Shown: positions 27,271 through 40,347 of the stretch, one piece after another
How the letters are laid out: every line of letters starts with the position of its first letter
How positions within the stretch are numbered: position 1 is the first letter of the stretch
Assembly: GCF_030651995.1 (NCBI RefSeq)
Contig: NZ_JAUSBN010000027.1
Span: 1 to 64,000, forward strand
Reading direction: 5' to 3'
Length of the DNA stretch: 64,000 nucleotides
DNA from: Reyranella sp.
GTDB lineage: Bacteria; Pseudomonadota; Alphaproteobacteria; Reyranellales; Reyranellaceae
Position numbers and translations under genes: made by a program
The notes under the pieces: model-generated
Database searches by the model: none
What the model was told of the DNA's origin: nothing
The model's input: the letters and a program-made list of their open reading frames with translations, nothing else

Positions 27271-30036
<2,766 letters not shown>

Positions 30037-30072
30037 TATCGTTTATTTTCAATAACTTACGAATTGTTGACT

Positions 30073-30142
30073 ACCTGCACAAACCTATACAAACTGCGTT
30101 TCCGGGCTGAAAAACAGCCCGGACCTATACAGAACCTACGCA
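30073..30142 (+). repeat. Candidate integrase arm-type repeats, left end
   Basis: Two related units, ACCTGCACAAACCTATACA (30073-30091) and ACCTATACAGAACCTACGCA (30123-30142), each hold two ACCTNNRCA-type motifs. A matching unit lies inside the right border at 40252-40271. Position and repetition fit arm sites bound by the N-terminal domain of a tyrosine integrase. Confidence 0.55.
30101..30123. terminator. Perfect 9-bp hairpin downstream of secA
   Basis: TCCGGGCTG (30101-30109) pairs exactly with CAGCCCGGA (30115-30123) around an A5 loop. There is no T-run after it, so it is a weak intrinsic terminator at best. It sits between the two arm-type repeats and could instead serve recombination or block read-through from secA into the integrase gene. 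Confidence 0.4.
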
Positions 30143-30160
30143 AGTTTGGTTGGGTGAGGC

Positions 30161-31345
30161 TTGGAAGTTCTAACGCGATTAGAGAACGGTAAACTCGTCG
30201 TGTATCGGCGCGGCGGTGTTCTATACGCGCGGCTGGCTATCGCCACCAACCAGTATCAGCACCGCAGCTTAAAGACTGGCAACGCTGAGCAGGCGACGCT
30301 GACGGCTCAAAAACTGTGGACAGAGTTCACAGTGAGACGGCAACTCGGGCTGCCAGTTAAGCAGCGGACGCTGAACACGGTAATTGATGAATACGTGGCG
30401 CTGCGTGAGAAGCAGCACCAGCAAGGTCGCACATCAGAGCACATGCTGCGCCAGACACATCGCGTAGTGAAATTCTGGCGTAAATACGCTGGCACTAAAC
30501 AAGTCAGCCAAATTGGCGATGCCGAGATGAGCGGCTACGTCGATTGGCGTCGCGATTACTACGCCGGCATGACCGATGACGAATTGCCCAAGAATGCCAA
30601 GCGGAACCCCACCCACAAGACGCTACAGTGGGAAATAATGCTGGGTAAGAGCATCATCAAATATGCTCAACAGCAGGGATACCGAGGCGCAGTACCCTTC
30701 CCCACCTTCTCGTTTACGCCGAAAACCAAACGTGTCCGTCCCGCGTTTTCCCTCGTCGATTACAGGAAGCTATGGCGAGCGTTGATTAAGTGGGAACGAG
30801 AGTGTGAAGACCCCCGACACCTACACACACGCCAGCTACTGCGCGACTACGTCCTGATACTGGCAAACAGCGGACTGCGTGTTGGTGAAGCGAACAATCT
30901 CAAACGGCGCGACATCGACCCGTTTAAGGACGAACACGGCAGACGCAATTACAGGCTGATTGTGCGCGGCAAGACGGGTGAGCGCGACGTTATCCCGCGA
31001 GCCATTACCACCAAGTATATCGAGCGCCTGTTAGCACGGCGCCCTGACATCAAGGCTGATGACTGGTTATTTGCGATGTCAGATGGCAGCCAGGTCATTA
31101 CGTTGATTGACCAATTCAACGTGGTGCTGAAACTGGCTGGAATTGAACGCAACAGCTTCAACGACAAATACACGCTCTACAGCCTCCGGCACTTCTATGC
31201 CACGCAGGCTCTAAACAACAATGTTCCCATCTACGCAGTGGCTAGGAACATGGGCACCAGCGTGAAGATTATTGAAACCTACTACGGAAAGGGCGCGACT
31301 GCATTGAGTATGGCGAGCATGCTGGGCGGGAAGCTGCGACAGTAG
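30161..31345 (+). CDS. Tyrosine-type site-specific integrase of the element
   Basis: Phage-type integrase (394 residues) that presumably inserts and excises this element at secA. An N-terminal arm/SAM-like core-binding part (about 1-180) is followed by the catalytic domain: first Arg in LANSGLRVGEANNL, the LRHFYAT box holding the second Arg-His, and the nucleophile Tyr in IIETYYGKG. Only TTG at 30161 is available as an early start, because a stop codon lies two codons before it; so the start is uncertain. It is placed next to attL, as usual for such elements. Confidence 0.88.
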   Translation: MEVLTRLENGKLVVYRRGGVLYARLAIATNQYQHRSLKTGNAEQATLTAQKLWTEFTVRRQLGLPVKQRTLNTVIDEYVALREKQHQQGRTSEHMLRQTHRVVKFWRKYAGTKQVSQIGDAEMSGYVDWRRDYYAGMTDDELPKNAKRNPTHKTLQWEIMLGKSIIKYAQQQGYRGAVPFPTFSFTPKTKRVRPAFSLVDYRKLWRALIKWERECEDPRHLHTRQLLRDYVLILANSGLRVGEANNLKRRDIDPFKDEHGRRNYRLIVRGKTGERDVIPRAITTKYIERLLARRPDIKADDWLFAMSDGSQVITLIDQFNVVLKLAGIERNSFNDKYTLYSLRHFYATQALNNNVPIYAVARNMGTSVKIIETYYGKGATALSMASMLGGKLRQ

Positions 31346-31417
31346 CCCTCTATCGTTCTCGTCATCTGCATACTTATTAGGCTAAACTCAGATAACTAAT
31401 ACTTGCGGGGACAGGGA

Positions 31418-31714
31418 ATGAACTGCCGTCGGCTAATCACAGCTGCAAGTATCTTCGCAGTGACAGCATTCACTCTGGTTGGCTGCGGAGAGAGCAAGGC
31501 GGCGGCTTTGGCACAATGTCATATAGAGGCAATGAAGACTTATCCTTCGAAGTCCCAATACGGAGACGAGGTACAGTTGTTCGTGCTTCTCTGCATGGAA
31601 GTCAAAGGCTACTCCCCCTCGTCGTTAACATCATGCATCGGCAGAGGGAAATTTGATGAAGCCTGCTACCAATCGCACTTTGAATACTGGTGGCGACGCA
31701 TTGTCTTCGGATAG
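31418..31714 (+). CDS. Small putative lipoprotein
   Basis: A 98-residue protein with a lipoprotein signal peptide: MNCRRLITAASIFAVTAFTLVGCGES, with lipobox LVGC and the lipidated Cys near residue 23. The mature part has several Cys and Tyr/Trp residues and no family I recognise. A Shine-Dalgarno-like GGGGACAGGG precedes ATG 31418. Such small lipoproteins on mobile elements sometimes act in surface exclusion, but nothing here proves it. Confidence 0.55.
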   Translation: MNCRRLITAASIFAVTAFTLVGCGESKAAALAQCHIEAMKTYPSKSQYGDEVQLFVLLCMEVKGYSPSSLTSCIGRGKFDEACYQSHFEYWWRRIVFG

Positions 31715-31854
31715 ACGACCGAAATATTCCAACGAGCTAACTTTCCGCACTTGGGTGTGAGAGTAATTGAGGCTTAACGCTAATACTCTCTCTGCTCTTA
31801 TTCATCTCGCCAACAAGGATGACAGTCAATTTTGGCAACATCAACACAGGACGT

Positions 31855-32184
31855 TCAGCTTAGTGGACTTTTTCCATTTTGACTCTGCGAAAGCGCCTGC
31901 TTCACTACAATCGCCACCGTATTACAACTGATACCACGTCTTTTACAGTAAGCCGATTCCATCCAATCACTGAGCAATTTTGCACCCTTGCTCGAATTGC
32001 ACGAACGACAGCAAAGCGCGATGTTTTCCCTAGTTATAATCTTTGCATCGTTACAGATATGTTCCCAGCTTGGTCGGCTCCCATGACTGTCTACTGAGCC
32101 AAAGAGAACCCCGCAGTAGACGCAGTTGGAATCGCGTTCTCTTACTTCTAATTCGAGCCACTTAGGGATGTTCCAACGATTCAT
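31855..32184 (-). CDS. HNH endonuclease domain protein
   Basis: A 109-residue HNH-type protein. The zinc pairs CVYC (about 21-24) and CRSC (about 58-61) frame the core SRPSWEHI and ENIALCCRSCNSSKGAKLL, which match HNH nucleases such as McrA/5-methylcytosine-type enzymes. It could nick or cleave DNA for defence or for element mobility. No strong ribosome binding site is seen. Its flanks are non-coding. Confidence 0.8.
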   Translation of the reverse strand: MNRWNIPKWLELEVRERDSNCVYCGVLFGSVDSHGSRPSWEHICNDAKIITRENIALCCRSCNSSKGAKLLSDWMESAYCKRRGISCNTVAIVVKQALSQSQNGKSPLS

Positions 32185-32230
32185 TTATCGTTACGCTTTG
32201 TCTGATTAATTTTTATAGTCGCCGCTGGCA

Positions 32231-32254
32231 CGGTAGCTACTCGGGCAGCTACCG
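32231..32254. terminator. Hairpin with 8-bp stem
   Basis: CGGTAGCT (32231-32238) pairs with AGCTACCG (32247-32254). CATTTT follows on the plus strand. The neighbouring genes run on the minus strand, where no T-run follows, so a terminator role is doubtful. Confidence 0.3.
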
Positions 32255-32369
32255 CATTTTACCAACGCTTCCTGTGCGACGGCTGGTTCCGTCGCGAGAA
32301 CAATCGGAACAACGAGAGCCCCAAGCTTCATAGCCTCTCCCGGCAGCACTGCGTTTGGGTCGCAGTAGC

Positions 32370-32810
32370 CTATTTGCCTGTTGATCGTGCTCGCCCCTTG
32401 TTCGCATTGTCAATCGCTGCGTCGAGTTCACCAGCCCGAACTGCACCAATAATCTTGTCAAATACTGGCACCAGCTTGGTGTTATCGCCGATAACAATTG
32501 CTGTCTTTTCGCCCTGCAATTCTAGCAGCCGACTGCCCCAGCGCACGACCAGCACCACCTTGCCGTCAGCGTCCTTCGTCCACCAACGCCGCAAGCGCTT
32601 TGGAGCCTCTACCTGCTTCTTCTCGCCAGTCTCCGTAATCTCCCAACGCCGACGCATCACCTTATGGTCGCGTCCCTCAGCATCGGCGATAGCGATGTCA
32701 CGCTGCTCCTGCAGATTGGCGATGAGCTTGTTCCGACGATATTCCTCTGACGGAATGAGATTGGCGGCACGCGGTGCCGTCGTAAAAGTAAGTCCCTTCA
32801 ACATGCTCAT
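32370..32810 (-). CDS. Conserved element protein resembling DUF6641
   Basis: A 146-residue protein whose layout (MSMLKGLTFTTAPRAANLIPSEEYRRNKLIANL, then an Arg-rich middle with PKRLRRWWTKDADGKVVLVVRWGSRLLEL) resembles DUF6641 proteins, as I remember them; the function is unknown. The start is ATG 32810, preceded by AAGGAGA at good spacing. Such proteins occur on integrative elements and phage-like islands. The family name should be treated as tentative. Confidence 0.6.
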   Translation of the reverse strand: MSMLKGLTFTTAPRAANLIPSEEYRRNKLIANLQEQRDIAIADAEGRDHKVMRRRWEITETGEKKQVEAPKRLRRWWTKDADGKVVLVVRWGSRLLELQGEKTAIVIGDNTKLVPVFDKIIGAVRAGELDAAIDNANKGRARSTGK

Positions 32811-32940
32811 CGCTGTCTCCTTGTTGTGCGATGAGTTCAATCAATAGCCAGGCGCTAAACTGGACAATCGGTATGATGAGCTGAAAAGCATTTTCTGGTT
32901 CAGTCTATTTGAGGCAGCCAACACCGAATTACACCGCCCC

Positions 32941-33111
32941 TTATATTTTAGCTGGTGGCGTCCCAGTTAAGCTGTTGTTGGCAATCTTCCTGTATTGAGC
33001 CATTGCCTTCTGTATTCGCAGGTTTGCCTTCTGCTTCTTTACGGCTTGTTCCTTTTGCTTCACCGCTTGTTCGGCGGCGCTCATATCCTCAACCACTTCA
33101 TCCACTGTCAT
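32941..33111 (-). CDS. Small coiled-coil protein, unknown function
   Basis: A 56-residue protein that is mostly one predicted helix: alternating Glu, Lys, Gln and Ala (AAEQAVKQKEQAVKKQKANLR). AGGAG lies 8 bases before ATG 33111, which supports real translation from that codon rather than from a longer frame reaching 33216. No family is recognised. Confidence 0.5.
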   Translation of the reverse strand: MTVDEVVEDMSAAEQAVKQKEQAVKKQKANLRIQKAMAQYRKIANNSLTGTPPAKI

Positions 33112-33391
33112 AGTCAATCTCCTGTTCGCTACATATTTAGCTGCCTGACAGGAAATCGGTTGCGAAGGGGTATGAGCGGCAGCAGTATGATTTTTGCTAC
33201 GTGCTAATGGTGTCAATCTGACCTGCTTTTCGCTGCCAGATTTCCGCTAAGATATTGAGCTTGATTGAGTAATAGAATTACCCACTCAGCAGTCTAGCTC
33301 TACGACGCTCTATCAGAGCTTCTCGTAGCGATGAGCTACGCAGCTACAGCCCAACTCTACAAACAGCATGACAAGCTCTTGTAGGGTTCGA

Positions 33392-33664
33392 CTAAACGCG
33401 ATTTGAAGCGCGGCATCGCTTATCTAGCTGCTTGAATAGCTGGGCACTAGCTACTGCCAAATCGAGCTGGATGGGACTGCTGCGCTGGGCTTGGGATTTG
33501 AGATTGTTAGCAAGCGTATAGACAGCACTGACGCTGGCACTGCGATTGCGTGCTTTGATGCTGCTGAACCAGGTATTGCGGCGTCCACATAACTTGCTGA
33601 ATTCGTATTGGCTTTTGACGACGCCGATATCGCGTAACTGATGGTAAATTGCGGTAATATTCAT
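33392..33664 (-). CDS. Small HTH-like protein (resembles DUF6626)
   Basis: A 90-residue protein. The stretch KSQYEFSKLCGRRNTWFSSI and the following SVSAVYTLANNLKS have the pattern of a Cro/C1-type helix-turn-helix. The family resembles DUF6626 as I remember it; the label is tentative. It is divergent from the Rep-like gene, and the shared 166-bp region holds a perfect 12-bp inverted repeat, so this protein is a good candidate for the local repressor. Confidence 0.6.
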   Translation of the reverse strand: MNITAIYHQLRDIGVVKSQYEFSKLCGRRNTWFSSIKARNRSASVSAVYTLANNLKSQAQRSSPIQLDLAVASAQLFKQLDKRCRASNRV

Positions 33665-33700
33665 CAGCTATTTACGTAATTTTATCATAAATCGGCTAAA

Positions 33701-33760
33701 AATGTCGATATTTAATTAAACATTGAGCGAAAAACACGAGAATATCGACATTCTGAGCGA
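33701..33760. promoter_or_regulatory. Inverted-repeat operator or origin between divergent genes
   Basis: AATGTCGATATT (33701-33712) and AATATCGACATT (33741-33752) are exact reverse complements, 28 bases apart. TGAGCGA occurs after each half (33724-33730 and 33754-33760). The stretch is very A+T-rich, with a TATATT-like box near 33770. It may be the operator of the 90-residue HTH-like protein, an origin recognised by the Rep-like protein, or both. Confidence 0.6.
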
Positions 33761-33830
33761 TATTTGCTATATTAACGCCTATTAATTGAGTGCTTTTTTA
33801 GAGAAGCGCTACAAATTTAGTAAATACAAT

Positions 33831-34352
33831 ATGCCTAACCACTCTTCATCCTCAGTCATTCAATATAAGCTCAGCCAGCATCCTGAAGTGAAGCAATGGC
33901 TGAATACATATACAGGCAATGACGTTGTTGCGTTTACGCTGCGCTGGACCTTGCGCTGTAGACAAGAACGCAGATTATACGACGACATTAGTTGTAGCAG
34001 AGATGTTGGCTTTTTTTGGAGTGGATTTGAGACAATAATGTTTGGGAAGCAGAACAAGCGAAAGCTGAAGCGATTTTTGACGCTGGAGAAGACTGACGGA
34101 TTTAGCTGGCATTTACACGGGCTATGCGAAGCTGACAGATTTACGGCTGAAGATATGGCGTTGCTGTTAGACTACTGCTGGCGACGACATATACGAATTG
34201 CAGGAAGCAACTGGCATACTGAGAAGCATTTAGTAGAAGCGAAGCGTTACGAGCGTGGCTGCTACGGCGAATACTGTATAAAACACATTGATAATGACAA
34301 CATGAATAGCAACAGAAATATTGGCACGATTGACGCAATGAATACGAACTAA
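33831..34352 (+). CDS. Putative HUH-type replication initiator-like protein
   Basis: A 173-residue protein. HLHG (in FSWHLHGLCEAD, about residue 100) has the His-hydrophobic-His form of HUH enzymes. The later GCYGEYCIKHID carries the Tyr-x-x-Lys pattern of the nicking Tyr in small Rep and inovirus/microvirus initiator-like proteins. This suggests a single-strand nickase for rolling-circle replication or transfer, but it is shorter than most Reps. I start at ATG 33831; a TTG at 33786 would add 15 residues. No clear ribosome binding site is seen. Confidence 0.5.
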   Translation: MPNHSSSSVIQYKLSQHPEVKQWLNTYTGNDVVAFTLRWTLRCRQERRLYDDISCSRDVGFFWSGFETIMFGKQNKRKLKRFLTLEKTDGFSWHLHGLCEADRFTAEDMALLLDYCWRRHIRIAGSNWHTEKHLVEAKRYERGCYGEYCIKHIDNDNMNSNRNIGTIDAMNTN

Positions 34353-34817
34353 GCTTGAGAGGCAGGAATGCTAAGCACACTGTTTGACAGGTTACAGTGT
34401 AGTAAACGAACAGCGCTTTGTTGAATTGTTTAGTAGTAGAAAAGCAGCATTTAGAGATGTTGCTTAAGTAATACTATTGTTTGAATTCTAGTACTGAACA
34501 CATTATTTCAATACAATTACGACATTCTCACAATCTCCACTATCTACAATAAATCAGAGCTTTTTTACTTGAATACATATTCACTAATTGAACGACTGAA
34601 TAATTCGACATCAACACATTGAACAAGACAGACATGAAACAAGCCAGGCAATGGATGGCTGGCTTGTCACACGTCCGATTATCGCTTGAGGCTTTGGCTA
34701 CGCTGGTGGCGGGATGAAGCAGCGGCTCGGGTAGCGAAGCCCCCCCTATTCTGCTGCCTCGATACATCGCATTGATGTCTTGTGTGGTAGGATTTCTTGC
34801 CCACAGAAGTTCAATGC
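34353..34817. other. A+T-rich non-coding stretch of the element
   Basis: No gene is supported here. The frame on the minus strand that crosses it (34540-34923) overlaps a better gene and has no family-like features. A 9-bp stem (ACAAGCCAG, 34639-34647, with CTGGCTTGT, 34659-34667) is present. The A+T content and position behind the Rep-like gene could fit an origin region, which is speculation. Confidence 0.4.
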
Positions 34818-35228
34818 CTACTCTCTGAAACGTAGCTTGAGCAAATCCCGCACGTTCTCTTGCTTCATCAACATTTCGAATCCGAGCCGTGCTGACAGAT
34901 TGAGCCCACTGAACCGAACCCAATCTTCGTCGCGTAGAGCAAACATGGCTTCATGTCCTCGCGTCAATGTAAGCAGTTCTATGGCGGCTTGATTATCTGC
35001 GAGATTGCCCACTGCCAGCGTGATGTTTGCCCGCACCATGTCCAACATCCTTTGGCTGAGAGGACGAGTACTTCCGACTTTCTTCCTGCCACTCTGGCGC
35101 TTGATAATACCTTTCGGTGGCGAGTCTTTCATTGGCGCGTTGGGTACTTTATTCCGTCGGGCGCGCTGCAAGTGCTTGGACTTGCTCGTACCCGCGCTGT
35201 GCTTACGCGTAGAAGTAGATTTCTTCAT
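34818..35228 (-). CDS. Basic hypothetical protein of the element
   Basis: A 136-residue protein with a strongly basic, Lys/Arg/Ser-rich disordered N-terminus (about 1-55) and a helical C-terminal domain (SQRMLDMVRANITLAVGN through LLKLRFRE). The composition suggests nucleic-acid binding, or a phasin-like helical bundle for the second half; neither is established. It is divergent from the 253-residue protein gene. Confidence 0.55.
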   Translation of the reverse strand: MKKSTSTRKHSAGTSKSKHLQRARRNKVPNAPMKDSPPKGIIKRQSGRKKVGSTRPLSQRMLDMVRANITLAVGNLADNQAAIELLTLTRGHEAMFALRDEDWVRFSGLNLSARLGFEMLMKQENVRDLLKLRFRE

Positions 35229-35357
35229 TGTGATGTTCTTTCATATTGTGAGCGTGATTGCGTTAACACCATGTCTTCGCTAATCATTGAGCCAATTATA
35301 TTACGGGTTTCGTAGTACGTATGTGCGCGTCACAAACGGACTAATACGGACGTTAAC

Positions 35358-36119
35358 ATGTCGGTCTACTTCACTGCTCTCCACCCCCTCTTCGGCAGAG
35401 GCAAGAAGCCGCTCGGCATCGCTTACCAGCAGCGCAGCCCCTATTATTGGTGGTGGGCGTTCCTGCGACGGAACGAGCGGTATCTCGCCTGCTGTGAACG
35501 AAACGGAGAGGGTGAGCTTTCTGAGCTCTATTCCGCCTTTAAAGACGTGAGAAACGACAACTTTAAAGAGTGGTCGACGCGGAAGACGGACATCCCCAAG
35601 TTGTCGTTGGGAGCATTTCTGTTTGGTGAACAGCAGATAGCGCTCACTCTAAAAGAACTCGAGCGTCGGGATGAATGGCGGGAGGACTGGCGGCAGGACA
35701 GTGTGCTCGTCATTGCCGCCAGCCTGTCTATCAGCAAGAAGCGGCTAAAGGCGCTGTTCAATAAGCTTCTGAAGAAGAGGCACACCCGAACGAGGGGGAG
35801 AAAGTCATTCGCTGAGCTAACAAGGGAGAGCACGGCGAGGTTCAAGCTCTATCAGGTAGCTGATACCCATGCGCTCGGTATTCAGCTTCGTGTTTTTGAC
35901 GCCTGCACAGCCAATGTGAAGGTGGGTAGCCCGAAAACCCTCGCAGAAATAGGAATTGAGCTGGGGCTCATGCCCAGTGCTCGTCCCAAAGCGGGCGACG
36001 ATAAGCGAGAAATCGCCCGCAAGCGCATAATAATGGCAGCAGCTGTGAGCCGCTATTACAGGCAGGCGCGGAAGATTGTCGGAAACACGAGCTTGGGGAT
36101 TTTTCCCAAGCCTTCGTAG
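35358..36119 (+). CDS. Hypothetical protein with WxFLRRN motif
   Basis: A 253-residue soluble protein. Its N-terminus (YYWWWAFLRRNERYLACCE) has the WxxLRRNxxY pattern of short transcriptional-regulator-like domains (DUF6499-type) common on conjugative and integrative elements. The middle is helical and basic (SISKKRLKALFNKLLKKRHTRTRGRKS), and the C-terminus is Arg/Lys-rich. A DNA-related role is likely but unproven. Its stop codon abuts the stop of the convergent H-NS-like gene with no base between. Confidence 0.55.
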   Translation: MSVYFTALHPLFGRGKKPLGIAYQQRSPYYWWWAFLRRNERYLACCERNGEGELSELYSAFKDVRNDNFKEWSTRKTDIPKLSLGAFLFGEQQIALTLKELERRDEWREDWRQDSVLVIAASLSISKKRLKALFNKLLKKRHTRTRGRKSFAELTRESTARFKLYQVADTHALGIQLRVFDACTANVKVGSPKTLAEIGIELGLMPSARPKAGDDKREIARKRIIMAAAVSRYYRQARKIVGNTSLGIFPKPS

Positions 36120-36446
36120 TCAAATAGCCAAGTCCTCGATCTTCTTGCCGGTCTTGATAGCAGCAGCGACCCACTTCGGCTGCCTGCCTCGCCCCGTCCA
36201 CGTTTCGGTCTTGTTGGCTGGGTTACGATACTTCGGCGGGACCTTCTTGCCCTTCAGCTTGCTGGTGCTGGCGGTCTTCTTGCCAGTTAGCGCATTTTTG
36301 ACGTCGCTCAGGTCCAGCTTGTATTTTTTCAGCACAGCCTTCAGCTGCTTCATGCCAGGCTTTTCAGCGTTCTTCAGTGCGTCGGCTTTTGCCTGCAGTT
36401 CGCGTATCTGCGCTTCGATACGGCTTAGGCTGGCTTTGCGCGGCAT
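36120..36446 (-). CDS. H-NS family nucleoid-associated protein
   Basis: A 108-residue xenogeneic silencer of the H-NS/MvaT-like class. The N-terminus is a helical oligomerisation part (RIEAQIRELQAKADALKN), and the C-terminus carries the DNA-binding core KYRNPANKTETWTGRGRQPKW with the TWTGRGRxP loop that binds A+T-rich minor grooves. It probably keeps element genes quiet and may affect other A+T-rich loci in the host. It is encoded on the element and followed upstream by the PD-(D/E)XK gene. Confidence 0.9.
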   Translation of the reverse strand: MPRKASLSRIEAQIRELQAKADALKNAEKPGMKQLKAVLKKYKLDLSDVKNALTGKKTASTSKLKGKKVPPKYRNPANKTETWTGRGRQPKWVAAAIKTGKKIEDLAI

Positions 36447-36467
36447 TTCCGACTCCTTATTCCTTTT

Positions 36468-37676
36468 TTATGATGCCACAACAGCGCTGCTGAACTTATA
36501 AGACTCCAGCGCAATTCTTTCATCAGCTTTTGACAGATTTAGCTTGAGACTATCATTTTCAGTTGTAAGAGCGATGTGCCAGTATTCTTTATCTCCGCTT
36601 TTTGTTTGGTTGAGTTTTGGCAACAACGCCTCCAAATCGGAGACGGGGATAGCAAATGCATCAACCCGATCCATACATGAGAGTATGAAATATCCGCTCT
36701 GCGCACTGCGCAAAAATGATAGCCATTTTGGGTGTAACGCATACCAATATGGCTGATAGTCCCTTGGATAGCGCTTCGATACTGCACATGTAACGTGAAT
36801 GGCGCCATCATTCGAAGCGAAGTTTGTTCTAGTGACTTGATGAAATGCCGCGTTCTTAGCCTGAAAGAAATTCGTAACGACGACTCGGCGTTGCGCGTCA
36901 AGATCATGGCGCGGCGTAAACTCGTATTTGGTATCTGATGCTGCGCCGTTCGATTCTGTTTCATCCAATTCTGCTTCAGCTTCAACTTTAACTTCAGTTT
37001 CTTGCTGTGTCTCGAAGACAAGTTCGACAATTTCGTCGACCTTCGTGTACTCGAACGGCAGCAATATTCTTTTCACCTTATCTAGAACATTAGTATGACT
37101 AAGGCGCTGGCATACGAACAGAAGCTTAAGCAGGGCATCGACGCTGATGAGACGCACATTCCATGCGTGGCGACTGCCCCGCACTTGAGCCTCCAGATCA
37201 CCAGTGTCATTTCTGCCTACAACAATCAGGACTTGCGGTTCGTCGCCCCATGCCACATTGGCATCACGCAGTTTTCTAGCGTAGTCGCGAATAGTATCGA
37301 GATTGATTCGATAGGCGTCGGTTGTTTTCACTTCGACTACGAACCGGGTTTTCCCTGTTGTCCACAAGCCGTCAAATCCATTTTCATTTCGCACGCCTGA
37401 GTATCGTCCATTAGTCACTTCGAAACCCAACCGCCGTCCAATCTCGTTCACCGTGTCCTGTAAAGCGAATCCACTTTGTGAGAAGGCGTTCTTTAGACAG
37501 TATGATGCGTGTAGAGCCAGTTGCTCTCCCGTCTGGCATGACAAAAAGTACCGCAAGTCGGCTTCACTTTCAGCGCCCGTTCGTAATTTTCCATCACCAC
37601 AAATCGCGACTATTTGTTCGATTGTGTATGAGGATAATGCGTCGGGCGTAACGGAGAGCAGGTCCTTTAGGGGCAT
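36468..37676 (-). CDS. PD-(D/E)XK nuclease-like protein
   Basis: A 402-residue protein with a PD-(D/E)XK nuclease signature near residues 110-135: the Asp in ENGFDGLW and the EVK in TRFVVEVKTTDAYRI. A possible acidic linker (EVKVEAEAELDETE) separates it from a C-terminal domain with many aromatic residues (YQPYWYALHPKWLSFL) that could recognise DNA. No methyltransferase accompanies it, so it is not a classical restriction-modification system. GAGGA lies six bases before the second ATG (37676), which I take as start. A stand-alone defence nuclease is plausible. Confidence 0.7.
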   Translation of the reverse strand: MPLKDLLSVTPDALSSYTIEQIVAICGDGKLRTGAESEADLRYFLSCQTGEQLALHASYCLKNAFSQSGFALQDTVNEIGRRLGFEVTNGRYSGVRNENGFDGLWTTGKTRFVVEVKTTDAYRINLDTIRDYARKLRDANVAWGDEPQVLIVVGRNDTGDLEAQVRGSRHAWNVRLISVDALLKLLFVCQRLSHTNVLDKVKRILLPFEYTKVDEIVELVFETQQETEVKVEAEAELDETESNGAASDTKYEFTPRHDLDAQRRVVVTNFFQAKNAAFHQVTRTNFASNDGAIHVTCAVSKRYPRDYQPYWYALHPKWLSFLRSAQSGYFILSCMDRVDAFAIPVSDLEALLPKLNQTKSGDKEYWHIALTTENDSLKLNLSKADERIALESYKFSSAVVAS

Positions 37677-37717
37677 CCGCATTCCTCACATGGTAGCGGA
37701 CTACTTTGCTCAACTTT

Positions 37718-38287
37718 CTAGGCTAACTCAACAGCCGCCTTCAGCACTTCCTCATTCAGGTCGATATAACGCTGAGTGGTTCCAATATGCTTGTGTCCTG
37801 CCAAGGCAGCGAGGACGCGCACATTCACCCCCTTGTTTGCTAGGTTAGTGATGAATGTTCGACGACCGCTATGACTAGTTGCCTTATCAATCCCCGCGGC
37901 GTTGTAGAGCTGGATGAAGCGCAAGCAGAGCCCATTTGCTGAGAACGCTTTTCCGGTTTTGCTAGGAATGAACGCTGATTGAGCGTCCGGCATCGTATCG
38001 TGGTTATTGATATAATTCCGTAGCTCTTGCTGTAGCTGAGTGCTTACGTGGACGGTTCGCGCTTCACTACCCTTTGTTTGCTCAGCGCTAAGCTGGATTT
38101 GAGCACGGATTTCACCAGTAGCACCGATTACGTCCCCGAACTTCAGTGCCGCGATTTCGCCGACGCGCATGCCAGCCAGCCAACTCAGCATCAGCATGGC
38201 GCGGTTACGCGCGGGATAGCTGCCCTTAGCTACGTGGCTCATCACGCGCTGCTTGTCCCGCTCTGTAAGCACCTGTGCTTGTTTCAT
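37718..38287 (-). CDS. Short tyrosine recombinase (catalytic domain only)
   Basis: A 189-residue recombinase with all catalytic positions: Arg in LAGMRVGEIAALK, the HSGRR box, His in LAGHKHIGTTQ and nucleophile Tyr in TTQRYIDLN. It has almost no N-terminal core-binding domain, unlike XerC/D or the element's main integrase. Short forms like this occur in rhizobial mobile elements. It could invert DNA, help excision, or be a shortened remnant that is still in frame. GGGAG precedes ATG 38287. Confidence 0.85.
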   Translation of the reverse strand: MKQAQVLTERDKQRVMSHVAKGSYPARNRAMLMLSWLAGMRVGEIAALKFGDVIGATGEIRAQIQLSAEQTKGSEARTVHVSTQLQQELRNYINNHDTMPDAQSAFIPSKTGKAFSANGLCLRFIQLYNAAGIDKATSHSGRRTFITNLANKGVNVRVLAALAGHKHIGTTQRYIDLNEEVLKAAVELA

Positions 38288-38510
38288 CGCTACACTCCCG
38301 CCTGGCTAATATTCAGTGCGGGGTCAGCGTGTTGTCTGAACTGCTGAAGGGCAACCGAAAGGCGTGGCTAGAATTTGCCAATGCCTTCAACAGCTTCGCG
38401 CAACGGCTAAGACAATATGTATTTTGTTATGCTGCGATGTTGTCGGTAATGTAGAGCGCTGGGACCTGCTACCGAGGCAGGGAAAGTGAGAGTTTTGCGA
38501 GCGCAGCGAA

Positions 38511-39344
38511 ATGCCGGTCATGTTCAACACCATTCTTCAGCAAGAGGGCATTGATCCAGCTACGGTCAGATTGCTTCGGCACCAAGACACTCGCTCCACT
38601 ACATTGCACACACCGTATGAACTGTGGCGCGATAGCGCCACATCGTTTGACGCGTACCAGTCGGTGCAGAGCATCCACAATCGGTCCAAGTTCAAGCTTC
38701 CACTATGGGCATCGTTCGTAGCAGACCCGAGAGGCGCGACTCTTTTTGTAGGCTTGTATTCAGCGAAGTACGTCGGGTTGAGCGAGATGGACTTGCCTCG
38801 ACCACACACCCTCGGCGTAGATAAAGCGGGCGACTTCGATCTGTATGAGCTTCAACTACAGGCAGCGTTGGGCGATTTGATCGGCAAGCTTTATGTCGAT
38901 TGGGGAGCCGGCACGCGTGCGTGGGTGCAGCGCGCGAAAGACCGAAACAAGCCCGTCGTGGAAATTCGCACTGCCTTTCGGGAGGATGAGTTTCCGGGCT
39001 TCAGCAAGTTTTTGAAGCCGCTCTCCGAAATTCCCGCACTGCCGAAGTCTTGGATCGACCAGCTCAGTAAGACTAGGGGCGTCTATTTGTTGTCCTGCCC
39101 GAAAACGAAAGAGCAGTACGTTGGATCAGCGACTGGTGACGATGGCTTCTGGGGCAGATGGCAGTCCTACGCGCAGACCGGTCATGGCGGCAATGAAGGG
39201 CTCAAGATACGCGAAGCGAGCGACTATCGGGTCTCCATTCTTGAGACAGCTGGAAATCAATTGAGCAGAGACGACATCATTGCCCTTGAACAGCTATGGA
39301 AGGCAAAGCTGCAGAGCAGAGAGATGGGATTGAACAAGAACTAG
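38511..39344 (+). CDS. GIY-YIG nuclease family protein
   Basis: A 277-residue protein. The C-terminal third (from about 185) is a GIY-YIG domain: GVYLLSCP, QYVGSATG, the Arg/Trp helix GFWGRWQSY, and the Glu in IALEQLWKAKL followed by SREMGLN. The N-terminal 180 residues (ATLFVGLYSAKY and neighbours) form a second domain I cannot name, found with GIY-YIG in stand-alone restriction-like proteins. A second ATG at 38520 is possible. It likely cleaves DNA, and may defend the element or host. Confidence 0.8.
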   Translation: MPVMFNTILQQEGIDPATVRLLRHQDTRSTTLHTPYELWRDSATSFDAYQSVQSIHNRSKFKLPLWASFVADPRGATLFVGLYSAKYVGLSEMDLPRPHTLGVDKAGDFDLYELQLQAALGDLIGKLYVDWGAGTRAWVQRAKDRNKPVVEIRTAFREDEFPGFSKFLKPLSEIPALPKSWIDQLSKTRGVYLLSCPKTKEQYVGSATGDDGFWGRWQSYAQTGHGGNEGLKIREASDYRVSILETAGNQLSRDDIIALEQLWKAKLQSREMGLNKN

Positions 39345-39436
39345 AGCGCACTGACTAGCGCGGCTAGAGTGCAATTCTCTGCGATGCTAGGCTTCGCCCG
39401 TAGCCGCGGCGAGCAGTGCAACTGGGTGAGCTGCAG

Positions 39437-40159
39437 ATGACTGTTCGAGCGTCGGATCGGAATTCTTTAGTTGGCAACGCGGGCGTCAACTATGTCGCCT
39501 GGCAGTTATCGCGGCGGGGATGGCACGTGCTGCAAACGGTTCGAAACATCCGCGGGTCTGATCTATATGCCACCGATGTTGATGGAACGGTTTTCTTTGG
39601 CGTCCAGTCGAAGGCATCAGCTTCACAGAACCCTGTCGGACTTGGGCTGAATCTCGATGACTTGCGATCGGAATGGTGGGTCATCACCACACTGGTTAAC
39701 GCCGATGTACCTGTCTGTTACGTCTTGCGGCTCGAGGAAGTACGGCGGTTAGCGAAGCAGGACAAGAACGGCGGCAAGTGGTGGCTTGGCACGCGTGAAT
39801 ACTGTCAGGCTGATTTTCGCGAGAATTGGAACCGCATAGGCGAAGCGGGAGGCACCCCCGTGACGCAATCATTTACTGAAGCATCTTCATATTCTACTGG
39901 CTCGAAACCGGCGCGCGGCAAGCGTGAGGAGAGGAACGGCGTCAAGCGACCTGGCGCAGGAGGAAAATGCGCTGCCGTTTGGGACTACCTCGACTTGAGC
40001 CCTGCTGCGACCGCGAAGGATATGCGCGAACTCGCCACGTCGGTCGGCTGGAACATGAACAACACACTGATTGAGTACTATCAGTGGCGGAAGTTCCACG
40101 GGCTAACTCGGACCAGAGCGAAGGACGGAGCAGACAGCGACACTGATGTTGAGAAGTAG
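39437..40159 (+). CDS. PD-(D/E)XK-like protein with C-terminal helical domain
   Basis: A 240-residue protein. The N-terminal part (GNAGVNYVAWQLSRRGWHVLQ, then RGSDLYATDVDG and VQSKA) follows the strand-helix-strand order of PD-(D/E)XK folds related to nucleases or Holliday-junction resolvases. The final catalytic motif reads QSK instead of E/QxK-type neighbours, so activity is uncertain. A basic linker leads to a winged-helix-like C-terminus (AVWDYLDLSPAATAKDMRELA). ATG 39437 is chosen; GTG 39416 is in frame. It is the last gene before attR. Confidence 0.55.
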   Translation: MTVRASDRNSLVGNAGVNYVAWQLSRRGWHVLQTVRNIRGSDLYATDVDGTVFFGVQSKASASQNPVGLGLNLDDLRSEWWVITTLVNADVPVCYVLRLEEVRRLAKQDKNGGKWWLGTREYCQADFRENWNRIGEAGGTPVTQSFTEASSYSTGSKPARGKREERNGVKRPGAGGKCAAVWDYLDLSPAATAKDMRELATSVGWNMNNTLIEYYQWRKFHGLTRTRAKDGADSDTDVEK

Positions 40160-40251
40160 AGCAGTGCTTGCAGGTAACTCTGGCGACGCGAGCTGCGCTA
40201 TCGCACAGGGTTGTAGAAAAGTTAAAGCATCTCGTATAACGGGAACGTTAG

Positions 40252-40271
40252 ACCTGCACAAAACCTACACA
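40252..40271 (+). repeat. Candidate integrase arm-type repeat, right end
   Basis: ACCTGCACAAAACCTACACA matches the two units inside the left border (30073-30091 and 30123-30142) in sequence, orientation and layout. It lies about 60 bases inside attR. Confidence 0.55.
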
Positions 40272-40330
40272 GGGAGAAATTGATCATATATGTCATTGTT
40301 TTTATTGAATATTTTCTAATTCCATGGCAA

Positions 40331-40347
40331 TTCAAGCACTGCCACGG
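40331..40347 (+). repeat. attR core and displaced end of secA
   Basis: TTCAAGCACTGCCACGG is the exact 17-base copy of attL. With the following bases up to the TGA at 40355-40357 it encodes FKHCHGRV, the true C-terminus of host SecA, now cut off from the gene. Everything to the left is A+T-rich element DNA, and to the right G+C-rich chromosome resumes. Confidence 0.88.

What the first reader, a model, noticed from the sequence alone, without database searches (positions are those of the whole stretch)
36468..40159. Cluster of stand-alone nuclease-like genes: candidate defence module
Within 4 kb at the right end lie a 402-residue PD-(D/E)XK protein, a GIY-YIG protein with an unknown N-terminal domain, and a PD-(D/E)XK-like protein with a winged-helix-like tail; an HNH protein lies at 31855. 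No DNA methyltransferase is present, so this is not an ordinary restriction-modification system. Cargo at the far end of an integrative element is a typical place for anti-phage systems. The two-domain GIY-YIG and the EVK-type nuclease might each be separate systems or parts of one.
Basis: inference. Interest (0 to 1): 0.65.

Follow-up and report, generated by a model that had tools for sequence, protein, structure and literature searches.

The report
Mobile island carrying three nucleases
A ten-kilobase mobile DNA island inserted at the end of the secA gene carries three unrelated nuclease genes; one belongs to a known anti-phage family, and another looks like a nuclease fused to a piece otherwise seen in phages with chemically modified DNA.

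Summary
The three genes are real, but I found no sign that they form one module. They look like separate cargo of a 10.3-kb integrative element (window 30010-40347) in the 3' end of secA, bounded by a 17-bp repeat. A few other genomes have related elements that share several other genes and a short tyrosine recombinase, with different cargo.

GIY-YIG protein (38511-39344): UzuA of the known Uzume defence family (E 3.8e-81). PD-(D/E)XK protein (36468-37682): an unnamed family, mostly acidobacterial; its model has a FokI/HindIII-like domain plus a second PD-(D/E)XK-like fold. Third protein (39416-40159): a PD-(D/E)XK domain (I-Ssp6803I/NhoI/Hjc fold) fused to a small domain that in phages goes with dpdA, the 7-deazaguanine DNA-modification gene (11 of 15 records tested; the four without are fragments of 7-33 kb).

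In the loci examined the nucleases do not co-occur, except UzuA beside a relative of the third protein's nuclease domain on one plasmid. Best reading: independent defence cargo. Boldest open reading: the third protein is a chimeric nuclease aimed at 7-deazaguanine phages. No activity is shown.

The parts
30010..30026 (.). attL core TTCAAGCACTGCCACGG inside the secA 3' end; the sequence after it completes secA with a stop codon
30161..31345 (+). tyrosine integrase (Int), 394 aa, beside attL
   Evidence: Phage_integrase 3.3e-11; 46% identical to the Int at the same place in congener G013
31855..32184 (-). small HNH-like protein, 109 aa
   Evidence: PHROG endonuclease VII 2.4e-11; Pfam HNH_5 0.0093, below cut-off
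32370..32840 (-). DUF6641 protein, shared with related elements
   Evidence: PF20346 1e-15
33392..33664 (-). DUF6626 protein
   Evidence: PF20331 3.2e-9 here and 1e-33 in G401
35358..36119 (+). unknown protein (o35358), 253 aa
   Evidence: no Pfam match; tblastn relatives beside P4 in G401 and G286 (26-29%)
36120..36446 (-). H-NS family protein
   Evidence: Histone_HNS 4.7e-19
36468..37682 (-). P1: 404-aa protein, FokI/HindIII-like PD-(D/E)XK domain (about 1-229) plus second PD-(D/E)XK-like domain (about 257-400)
37718..38287 (-). P4: 189-aa tyrosine recombinase (catalytic domain only)
   Evidence: Phage_integrase 8.5e-31
38511..39344 (+). P2: UzuA (Uzume), GIY-YIG nuclease with family-specific N-terminal domain
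   Evidence: PADLOC PDLC03973 3.8e-81, residues 2-277 of 278
39416..40159 (+). P3: PD-(D/E)XK (Q-x-K type) nuclease domain fused to a C-terminal helical domain shared with dpdA phages
40331..40347 (.). attR core; a secA-type 3' ending follows

Best explanation
Window 30010-40347 is a 10.3-kb integrative element, one of a family that shares Int, DUF6641, DUF6626, o35358 and a catalytic-domain-only tyrosine recombinase in varying subsets. Int inserted it site-specifically into the 3' end of secA, whose last codons the element restores. The nuclease genes are independent cargo. UzuA is an Uzume defence protein (a single-gene system, as I recall) whose GIY-YIG domain is expected to cut invading nucleic acid. 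P1 is a stand-alone restriction-like nuclease: a FokI-like cleavage domain with a second PD-(D/E)XK-fold domain that probably serves recognition or dimerisation. P3 is a stand-alone nuclease whose C-terminal domain probably places it on particular phage DNA. None has a partner methyltransferase among the ORFs scanned, so self/non-self must be told by target features (modified bases, phage-specific sites or infection state). Shown: repeat-bounded element in secA, gene sharing with G013 and, more weakly, with four other genomes, family and fold assignments, lack of co-occurrence in the loci examined. Inferred: Int as the integrating enzyme, nuclease activity, anti-phage role, the role of each non-catalytic domain.
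For: 17-bp repeat and secA site. G013 has, at the same secA site, relatives of Int, DUF6641, H-NS, P4 and P3. With window proteins alone as queries, relatives lie together with P4 in G224 (DUF6641, Int), G170 (DUF6641, UzuA), G401 and G286 (Int, o35358). Cargo there differs: type I restriction genes (named by eye) before UzuA in G170; a type III restriction endonuclease domain near the G401 set. UzuA profile 3.8e-81; catalytic residues; folds; no shared neighbours of P1. Sparse distribution, own genome included: P1 in 2, P3 in 3 and P4 in 6 (E 1e-20) of 76 genomes of the order; UzuA in 14 and P3 in 5 of 385 genomes of the class.
Against: No activity is shown for any of the three. The element family is weakly founded outside G013: of 12 P4 stretches fetched (L149-L155, L160) show no second shared gene, though several of these are short contigs or contig ends; DUF6641 passes in only 2 of 76 genomes of the order, G013 below the curated cut-off; profile matches are partly by construction, since their seeds came from the same loci, some chosen by eye. 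P1 is unknown to all four family libraries, and 5 of its 13 relatives have broken frames in the assemblies (L008, L011-L014). Recognition roles for the second P1 domain and the P3 tail rest on analogy. UzuA and P3 lie on one strand 71 bases apart and one plasmid pairs UzuA with a P3-N relative (L023), which leaves room for cooperation of those two.
Confidence: 0.55

Rival explanations
1. The three nucleases, or all with the short recombinase, form one multi-gene defence system.
For: They lie within 3.7 kb; UzuA and P3 are co-directional; L023 has a P3-N relative convergent with UzuA.
Against: P1 appears without UzuA or P3 in 13 of 13 loci and without shared neighbours; in the other 11 UzuA plasmid loci viewed no P1 or P3 relative was found, and the neighbours vary, except that 4 have an integrase gene directly upstream; G013's P3 relative has no P1 or UzuA in its element stretches.
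Confidence: 0.06
2. The nucleases serve the element itself rather than the host: Hjc-like resolution, exclusion of competing elements, or homing.
For: P3's nuclease domain has the fold of Holliday-junction resolvases and of the homing endonuclease I-Ssp6803I (Z 8.5-12.4) and occurs without the tail on plasmids, including Sulfolobus pARN4, which suggests a plasmid-related job.
Against: UzuA and restriction genes lie in or near sister elements; P3's tail is shared with phages.
Confidence: 0.2
3. P1 and P3 are drifting orphan genes with no current role.
For: Broken frames in 5 of 13 P1 relatives; low frequency.
Against: Frames of P1, UzuA and P3 in the window are intact, with invariant catalytic residues across relatives at 41-43% (P1) and 29-57% (UzuA) identity.
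Confidence: 0.14

Closest known systems
Uzume (UzuA), PADLOC PDLC03973
   Same: Full-length profile match, GIY-YIG catalytic residues, relatives on many plasmids
   Different: Nothing evident; lies in a chromosomal secA-site element here. Mechanism given as unknown in passages of PMC12926258 and PMC10482375
PD-(D/E)XK-wH modification-dependent endonucleases (DpnI, FcyTI, Psp4BI; PMC11037411, abstract seen)
   Same: P3 has a PD-(D/E)XK domain followed by a small helical C-terminal domain and no partner methyltransferase among the ORFs scanned; DpnI is among its fold matches (Z 7.8 over 8-144)
   Different: Only the nuclease domain matches; P3's tail found no solved relative by sequence, and modification dependence is untested
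NhoI and Eco15I, methylation-directed restriction enzymes
   Same: Fold of P3's nuclease domain (Z 10.9 and 11.3); NhoI also for P1's C-domain (Z 8.5)
   Different: Sequence identity 9-15% to P3; different partner domains
Odn, chimeric origin-directed nuclease of phage ICP1 (PMC8263062, abstract seen)
   Same: A nuclease fused to a DNA-binding domain shared with the opponent, giving sequence-specific attack
   Different: Odn is phage-encoded against a satellite; P3 would be element-encoded against phages; binding and cleavage untested
GrwAB (PMC12137116, passages seen)
   Same: A restriction system active against Queuovirinae with 7-deazaguanine DNA; escapers change DpdA
   Different: Two-gene GmrSD-like DUF262/HNH system, different domains from P3
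FokI / N.BspD6I / HindIII
   Same: Fold of P1's first 229 residues (Z 10.8-12.1), D...ExK motif
   Different: No methyltransferase among the ORFs scanned; a second PD-(D/E)XK-fold domain instead of a known recognition domain
SNIPE (PMC13190303, passages seen)
   Same: A stand-alone GIY-YIG defence nuclease with another N-terminal region
   Different: SNIPE has a membrane anchor and DUF4041; UzuA shows no DUF4041 match; membrane segments were not tested

Membership tests
Uzume (UzuA) | Full-length match to the UzuA profile | tested here: met
   PDLC03973 3.8e-81, 2-277 of 278
Uzume (UzuA) | GIY-YIG catalytic residues | tested here: met
   Invariant Y192, Y203, R216, E260, N275 in 16 sequences
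Uzume (UzuA) | Anti-phage activity | not testable with these tools
   Needs plaque assays
PD-(D/E)XK-wH modification-dependent endonuclease (DpnI-like), P3 | PD-(D/E)XK nuclease domain | tested here: met
   Z 10.9-12.4 to I-Ssp6803I, Eco15I, NhoI and an Hjc; GxD...QxK conserved in the N-domain relatives aligned
PD-(D/E)XK-wH modification-dependent endonuclease (DpnI-like), P3 | C-terminal winged helix | tested here: inconclusive
   Three well-predicted helices, 183-227, after two very short strands; no solved relative by sequence; the fold search covered mainly residues 8-147
PD-(D/E)XK-wH modification-dependent endonuclease (DpnI-like), P3 | Cuts modified DNA only | not testable with these tools
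   Needs enzyme assays
Type II/IIS restriction-modification (P1) | FokI-like cleavage fold | tested here: met
   FokI Z 11.0, N.BspD6I Z 12.1
Type II/IIS restriction-modification (P1) | Cognate methyltransferase nearby | tested here: not met
   No methyltransferase match among the 14 element ORFs scanned
Gamma-mobile-trio islands | GmtY/GmtZ recombinases | tested here: not met
   P4 gave only E 0.02 (GmtZ) and 0.095 (GmtY), far below the cut-offs; Int gave neither
Chimeric opponent-domain nuclease (Odn-like), P3 | Domain shared with the presumed target parasite | tested here: met
   Tail found in 85 phage records; 11 of 15 records tested have dpdA; that it binds DNA is inferred
Chimeric opponent-domain nuclease (Odn-like), P3 | Cleaves target at the domain's binding site | not testable with these tools
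   Needs binding and cleavage assays

The most novel reading that the evidence does not exclude
P3 is a chimeric nuclease of a mobile element that has taken a DNA-binding domain from phages with 7-deazaguanine DNA and uses it, by reading either the modified base or a conserved phage operator, to cut exactly those phages, which resist many restriction enzymes. In phages the domain goes with dpdA: 11 of 15 domain-bearing records tested have it, the four without being fragments of 7-33 kb. Of the 60 best of 85 domain-bearing phage records, 16 fall in an even sample of 60 of the 226 dpdA records, which fits about 45-60 of the 60 having dpdA (15.9 expected for all 60); the collection holds 50,697 records. 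Shared descent of these phages could also produce this link.
Probability: 0.25. Interest if true: 0.75.

Novelty: new variant of a known kind. Interest (0 to 1): 0.5.

Why it matters
It breaks an apparent defence module into testable single genes and places UzuA among small integrative elements with interchangeable nuclease cargo. P3 points to a direct experiment: does a nuclease carrying a domain shared with 7-deazaguanine phages restrict those phages, whose DNA most restriction enzymes leave largely uncut (71% of those tried on phage 9g, PMC5567051, passages seen)? P1 gives a two-domain PD-(D/E)XK family absent from four family libraries, with relatives that by record title (phyla recalled) fall in four phyla.

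Tried and rejected
One-module reading: rejected on distribution. UzuA tied to a recombinase: 4 of 12 plasmid loci viewed have an integrase gene directly upstream (L026, L028, L031, L032), but P4 found no match in them at E 0.001; not pursued. P4 relatives on plasmids (323 records at E 1e-15, mainly Acinetobacter and Piscirickettsia, all under 60% identity; 418 at 1e-12 for the G013 copy): contexts not looked at. P1 relatives in plasmids and viral contigs: none; UzuA in viral contigs: none confirmed; these contig scans use short patterns and find close relatives only. A partial P1 relative in congener G063 (34%, residues 165-395) was not studied. PDB sequence searches gave nothing useful for P1, P3 or the P3 tail. 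Foldseek's viral library for P3 gave phage proteins with the tail and small PD-(D/E)XK proteins among its best rows. Rfam and tRNA scans of the window: no hits. The short recombinase as a self-targeting cassette system: left as an observation, because fragment ends are mixed (see Noticed in passing). Folds absent from the structure lists prove nothing. P1 alignment A1 used 9 of its 13 relatives; L011-L014 were dropped because their frames are broken, while L008, also broken, was kept as its first part. On rechecking I lowered the main confidence from 0.6 to 0.55, because 8 of 12 fetched P4 stretches show no second shared gene and the profiles were seeded from the loci that they match.
Full report
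What was checked. I scanned ten element proteins against Pfam, PHROGs, PADLOC and NCBIfam and four smaller ORFs against Pfam. The 38511-39344 protein is UzuA of the Uzume family (3.8e-81 over 2-277 of 278). The 36468-37682 protein (P1) matches no family above a cut-off. The 39416-40159 protein (P3) matches only PHROG families of unknown function, mainly through its C-terminal part (9.5e-21 and weaker).

The element. A 17-bp repeat, TTCAAGCACTGCCACGG (23 bp at 91%), lies at 30010, inside the last codons of secA, and at 40331. The left copy is followed by a sequence that completes secA with a stop codon; the right copy is followed by an ending like those of congeners. I picked 15 congeners out of the 64 held: all have the secA core, 12 exactly, 2 with one and 1 with two mismatches. 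A second core was seen downstream in 2 of 15 (G013 about 39 kb away, its secA copy having two mismatches; G011 3.4 kb away); for the other 13 only about 6-8 kb beyond secA was fetched, so longer insertions would be missed. In 2 of 15 (G067, G023) a right-flank gene of the window lies within 5 kb of secA without Int; in the other 13 no right-flank gene was found in the fetched stretch, so the empty site is only weakly shown. GC falls to 0.41-0.56 across the element. The window's order holds 76 genomes here, 65 of them in its own genus; from memory this looks like Reyranella, which no call confirms.

Related elements. At the same secA site G013 has relatives of Int (46%), DUF6641 (34%), H-NS (57%), P4 (48%) and P3 (29%), but no P1 or UzuA in the stretches fetched. 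I fetched 12 further P4 stretches. With window proteins as queries, 4 of 12 show a second element gene: G224 (DUF6641, Int), G170 (DUF6641, UzuA), G401 and G286 (Int, o35358), at 24-38% identity. Integrases are common, so Int alone is weak evidence. The other 8 of 12 show none; several of those are short contigs or contig ends. Profiles seeded partly from these same loci, some seeds chosen by eye, add DUF6626 in G224, G170, G401 and G286, o35358 in G170 and G013, and an AAA ATPase plus a second unknown gene in G170 and G401; these matches are partly by construction. DUF6626 is supported by Pfam in the window and G401. Among 33 comparison loci (L002-L034), chosen for P1, UzuA or P3, none showed DUF6641, DUF6626, o35358 or the other two at E 0.001, nor Int or P4 at 1e-12, the only level printed for those; this is a weak control. 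DUF6641 passes in 2 of 76 genomes of the order, G013 below the curated cut-off. G170 carries what read by eye as type I restriction genes followed by UzuA. A type III restriction endonuclease domain lies near the G401 set (RE_endonuc 3e-36; PADLOC REase_III 6.5e-60); the borders of those elements were not determined. The library holds no paper that names DUF6641 or DUF6626.

P1. One pattern-based scan of species genomes returned 13 relatives (39-47% identity): 10 acidobacterial by title, and one each from Puia, Verrucomicrobiales and Kineothrix. None was found in plasmids or viral contigs. No other gene is shared among the 13 loci within 5 kb. The model (pLDDT 71, pTM 0.52) has two domains. 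The first 229 residues match N.BspD6I, HindIII and FokI (Z 10.8-12.1); residues 255-403 match I-Ssp6803I, NhoI and Hjc (Z 8.3-8.9). D104, E117 and K119 are invariant in the first domain. The second has V301-S302-K303 where an ExK would be expected, so I infer a degenerate, recognition or dimerisation domain.

UzuA. It occurs in 388 plasmid records (128 covering at least 80%) and in 14 of 385 genomes of the class. Catalytic residues are invariant in 16 aligned sequences. The passages that I saw give the Uzume mechanism as unknown. The library has no paper with both 'Uzume' and 'GIY-YIG'.

P3. The N-terminal domain occurs on plasmids without the tail: 19 records, none covering 80% of P3, including Sulfolobus pARN4. 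Its model matches I-Ssp6803I (Z 12.4), Eco15I (11.3), Hjc (11.3), NhoI (10.9) and DpnI (7.8). The C-terminal domain occurs at or near the end of phage proteins whose N-terminal parts did not match P3, in 85 phage records. I tested 15 records that carry it for the phage 9g transglycosylase DpdA: 11 have it, namely all 7 named phages tested and all 4 virus contigs of 47 kb or more; the 4 without are fragments of 7.4, 10.0, 20.6 and 33.4 kb. By comparison DpdA matches 226 of 50,697 phage records. Overlap of the two capped listings is 16 of 60, against 15.9 expected if every listed domain carrier had dpdA; about 45-60 of 60 fit, 40 fits poorly. Caveats: many of these phages are related (Queuovirinae), duplicate accessions are counted, the V07 record is flagged unverified, 25 of 85 records were not listed, and one phage protein is annotated as a transcriptional activator, which would favour operator binding over base reading. 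The tail also occurs in congener G045 in a short ORF of 83 aa. In G013 the P3-like protein shows the same order of domains, but its nuclease half did not reach E 0.001 with a single-sequence search; the full-length alignment rests on tblastn (2e-13) and conserved motifs.

Mechanism. A stand-alone nuclease without a methyltransferase must avoid host DNA some other way. wH-fused endonucleases that sense modified bases (PMC11037411, abstract) and the chimeric nuclease Odn (PMC8263062, abstract) are two precedents for P3. GrwAB shows that 7-deazaguanine DNA can be a restriction target (PMC12137116, passages). P3 works like these on paper; membership is not established.

Verdict. The most interesting remainder is P3.

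Noticed in passing
L075 5637-5898, 7250-7511, 14138-14726 (G013); L150 5886-6156 (G010); L175 5388-5648 (G038); L154 2837-3076 (G082): 3' fragments of the short recombinase gene recur, in G013 as direct repeats between cargo blocks. Of 8 main fragments not cut by a contig end, 4 begin at the same place (model position 321-324 of 591) and a fifth nearby (346 by model); the other three begin at 431 (G061), 466 (G033) and 490 (G014); G013 also has three short pieces (293-391, 472-580, 505-585). In the loci held no lone 5' half was found except at contig or locus ends. Possible own-gene attachment site or cassette array; in G010 the fragment abuts what looks by eye like a cut insertion sequence.
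   Followed up: partly
L177 9301-9783: In G033 the secA 3' end is followed by a short ORF that joins what reads as the start of an Int-like gene to the end of the short recombinase gene: apparently the scar of an internal deletion of a related element.
   Followed up: partly
L075 5982-7058, 4923-5525: The G013 secA element carries a DzbB-like gene (2.5e-8) and a PDC-S33-like gene (3.2e-6) beside the recombinase repeats, and two radical-SAM-type genes by eye.
   Followed up: no
L086 (G024), secA end: The sequence after the secA core resembles by eye the left junction of the window and of G013, but no Int was found in the roughly 8 kb fetched: perhaps another or decayed element.
   Followed up: no
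L107 2983-3405 (Sulfolobus islandicus pARN4): An archaeal plasmid protein aligns with P3's nuclease domain at 38% identity, a cross-domain relationship of a plasmid-borne nuclease.
   Followed up: no
L157 12603-16757 (G170): UzuA directly follows what reads by eye as the restriction subunit of a type I system, on the same stretch as P4 and DUF6641.
   Followed up: no
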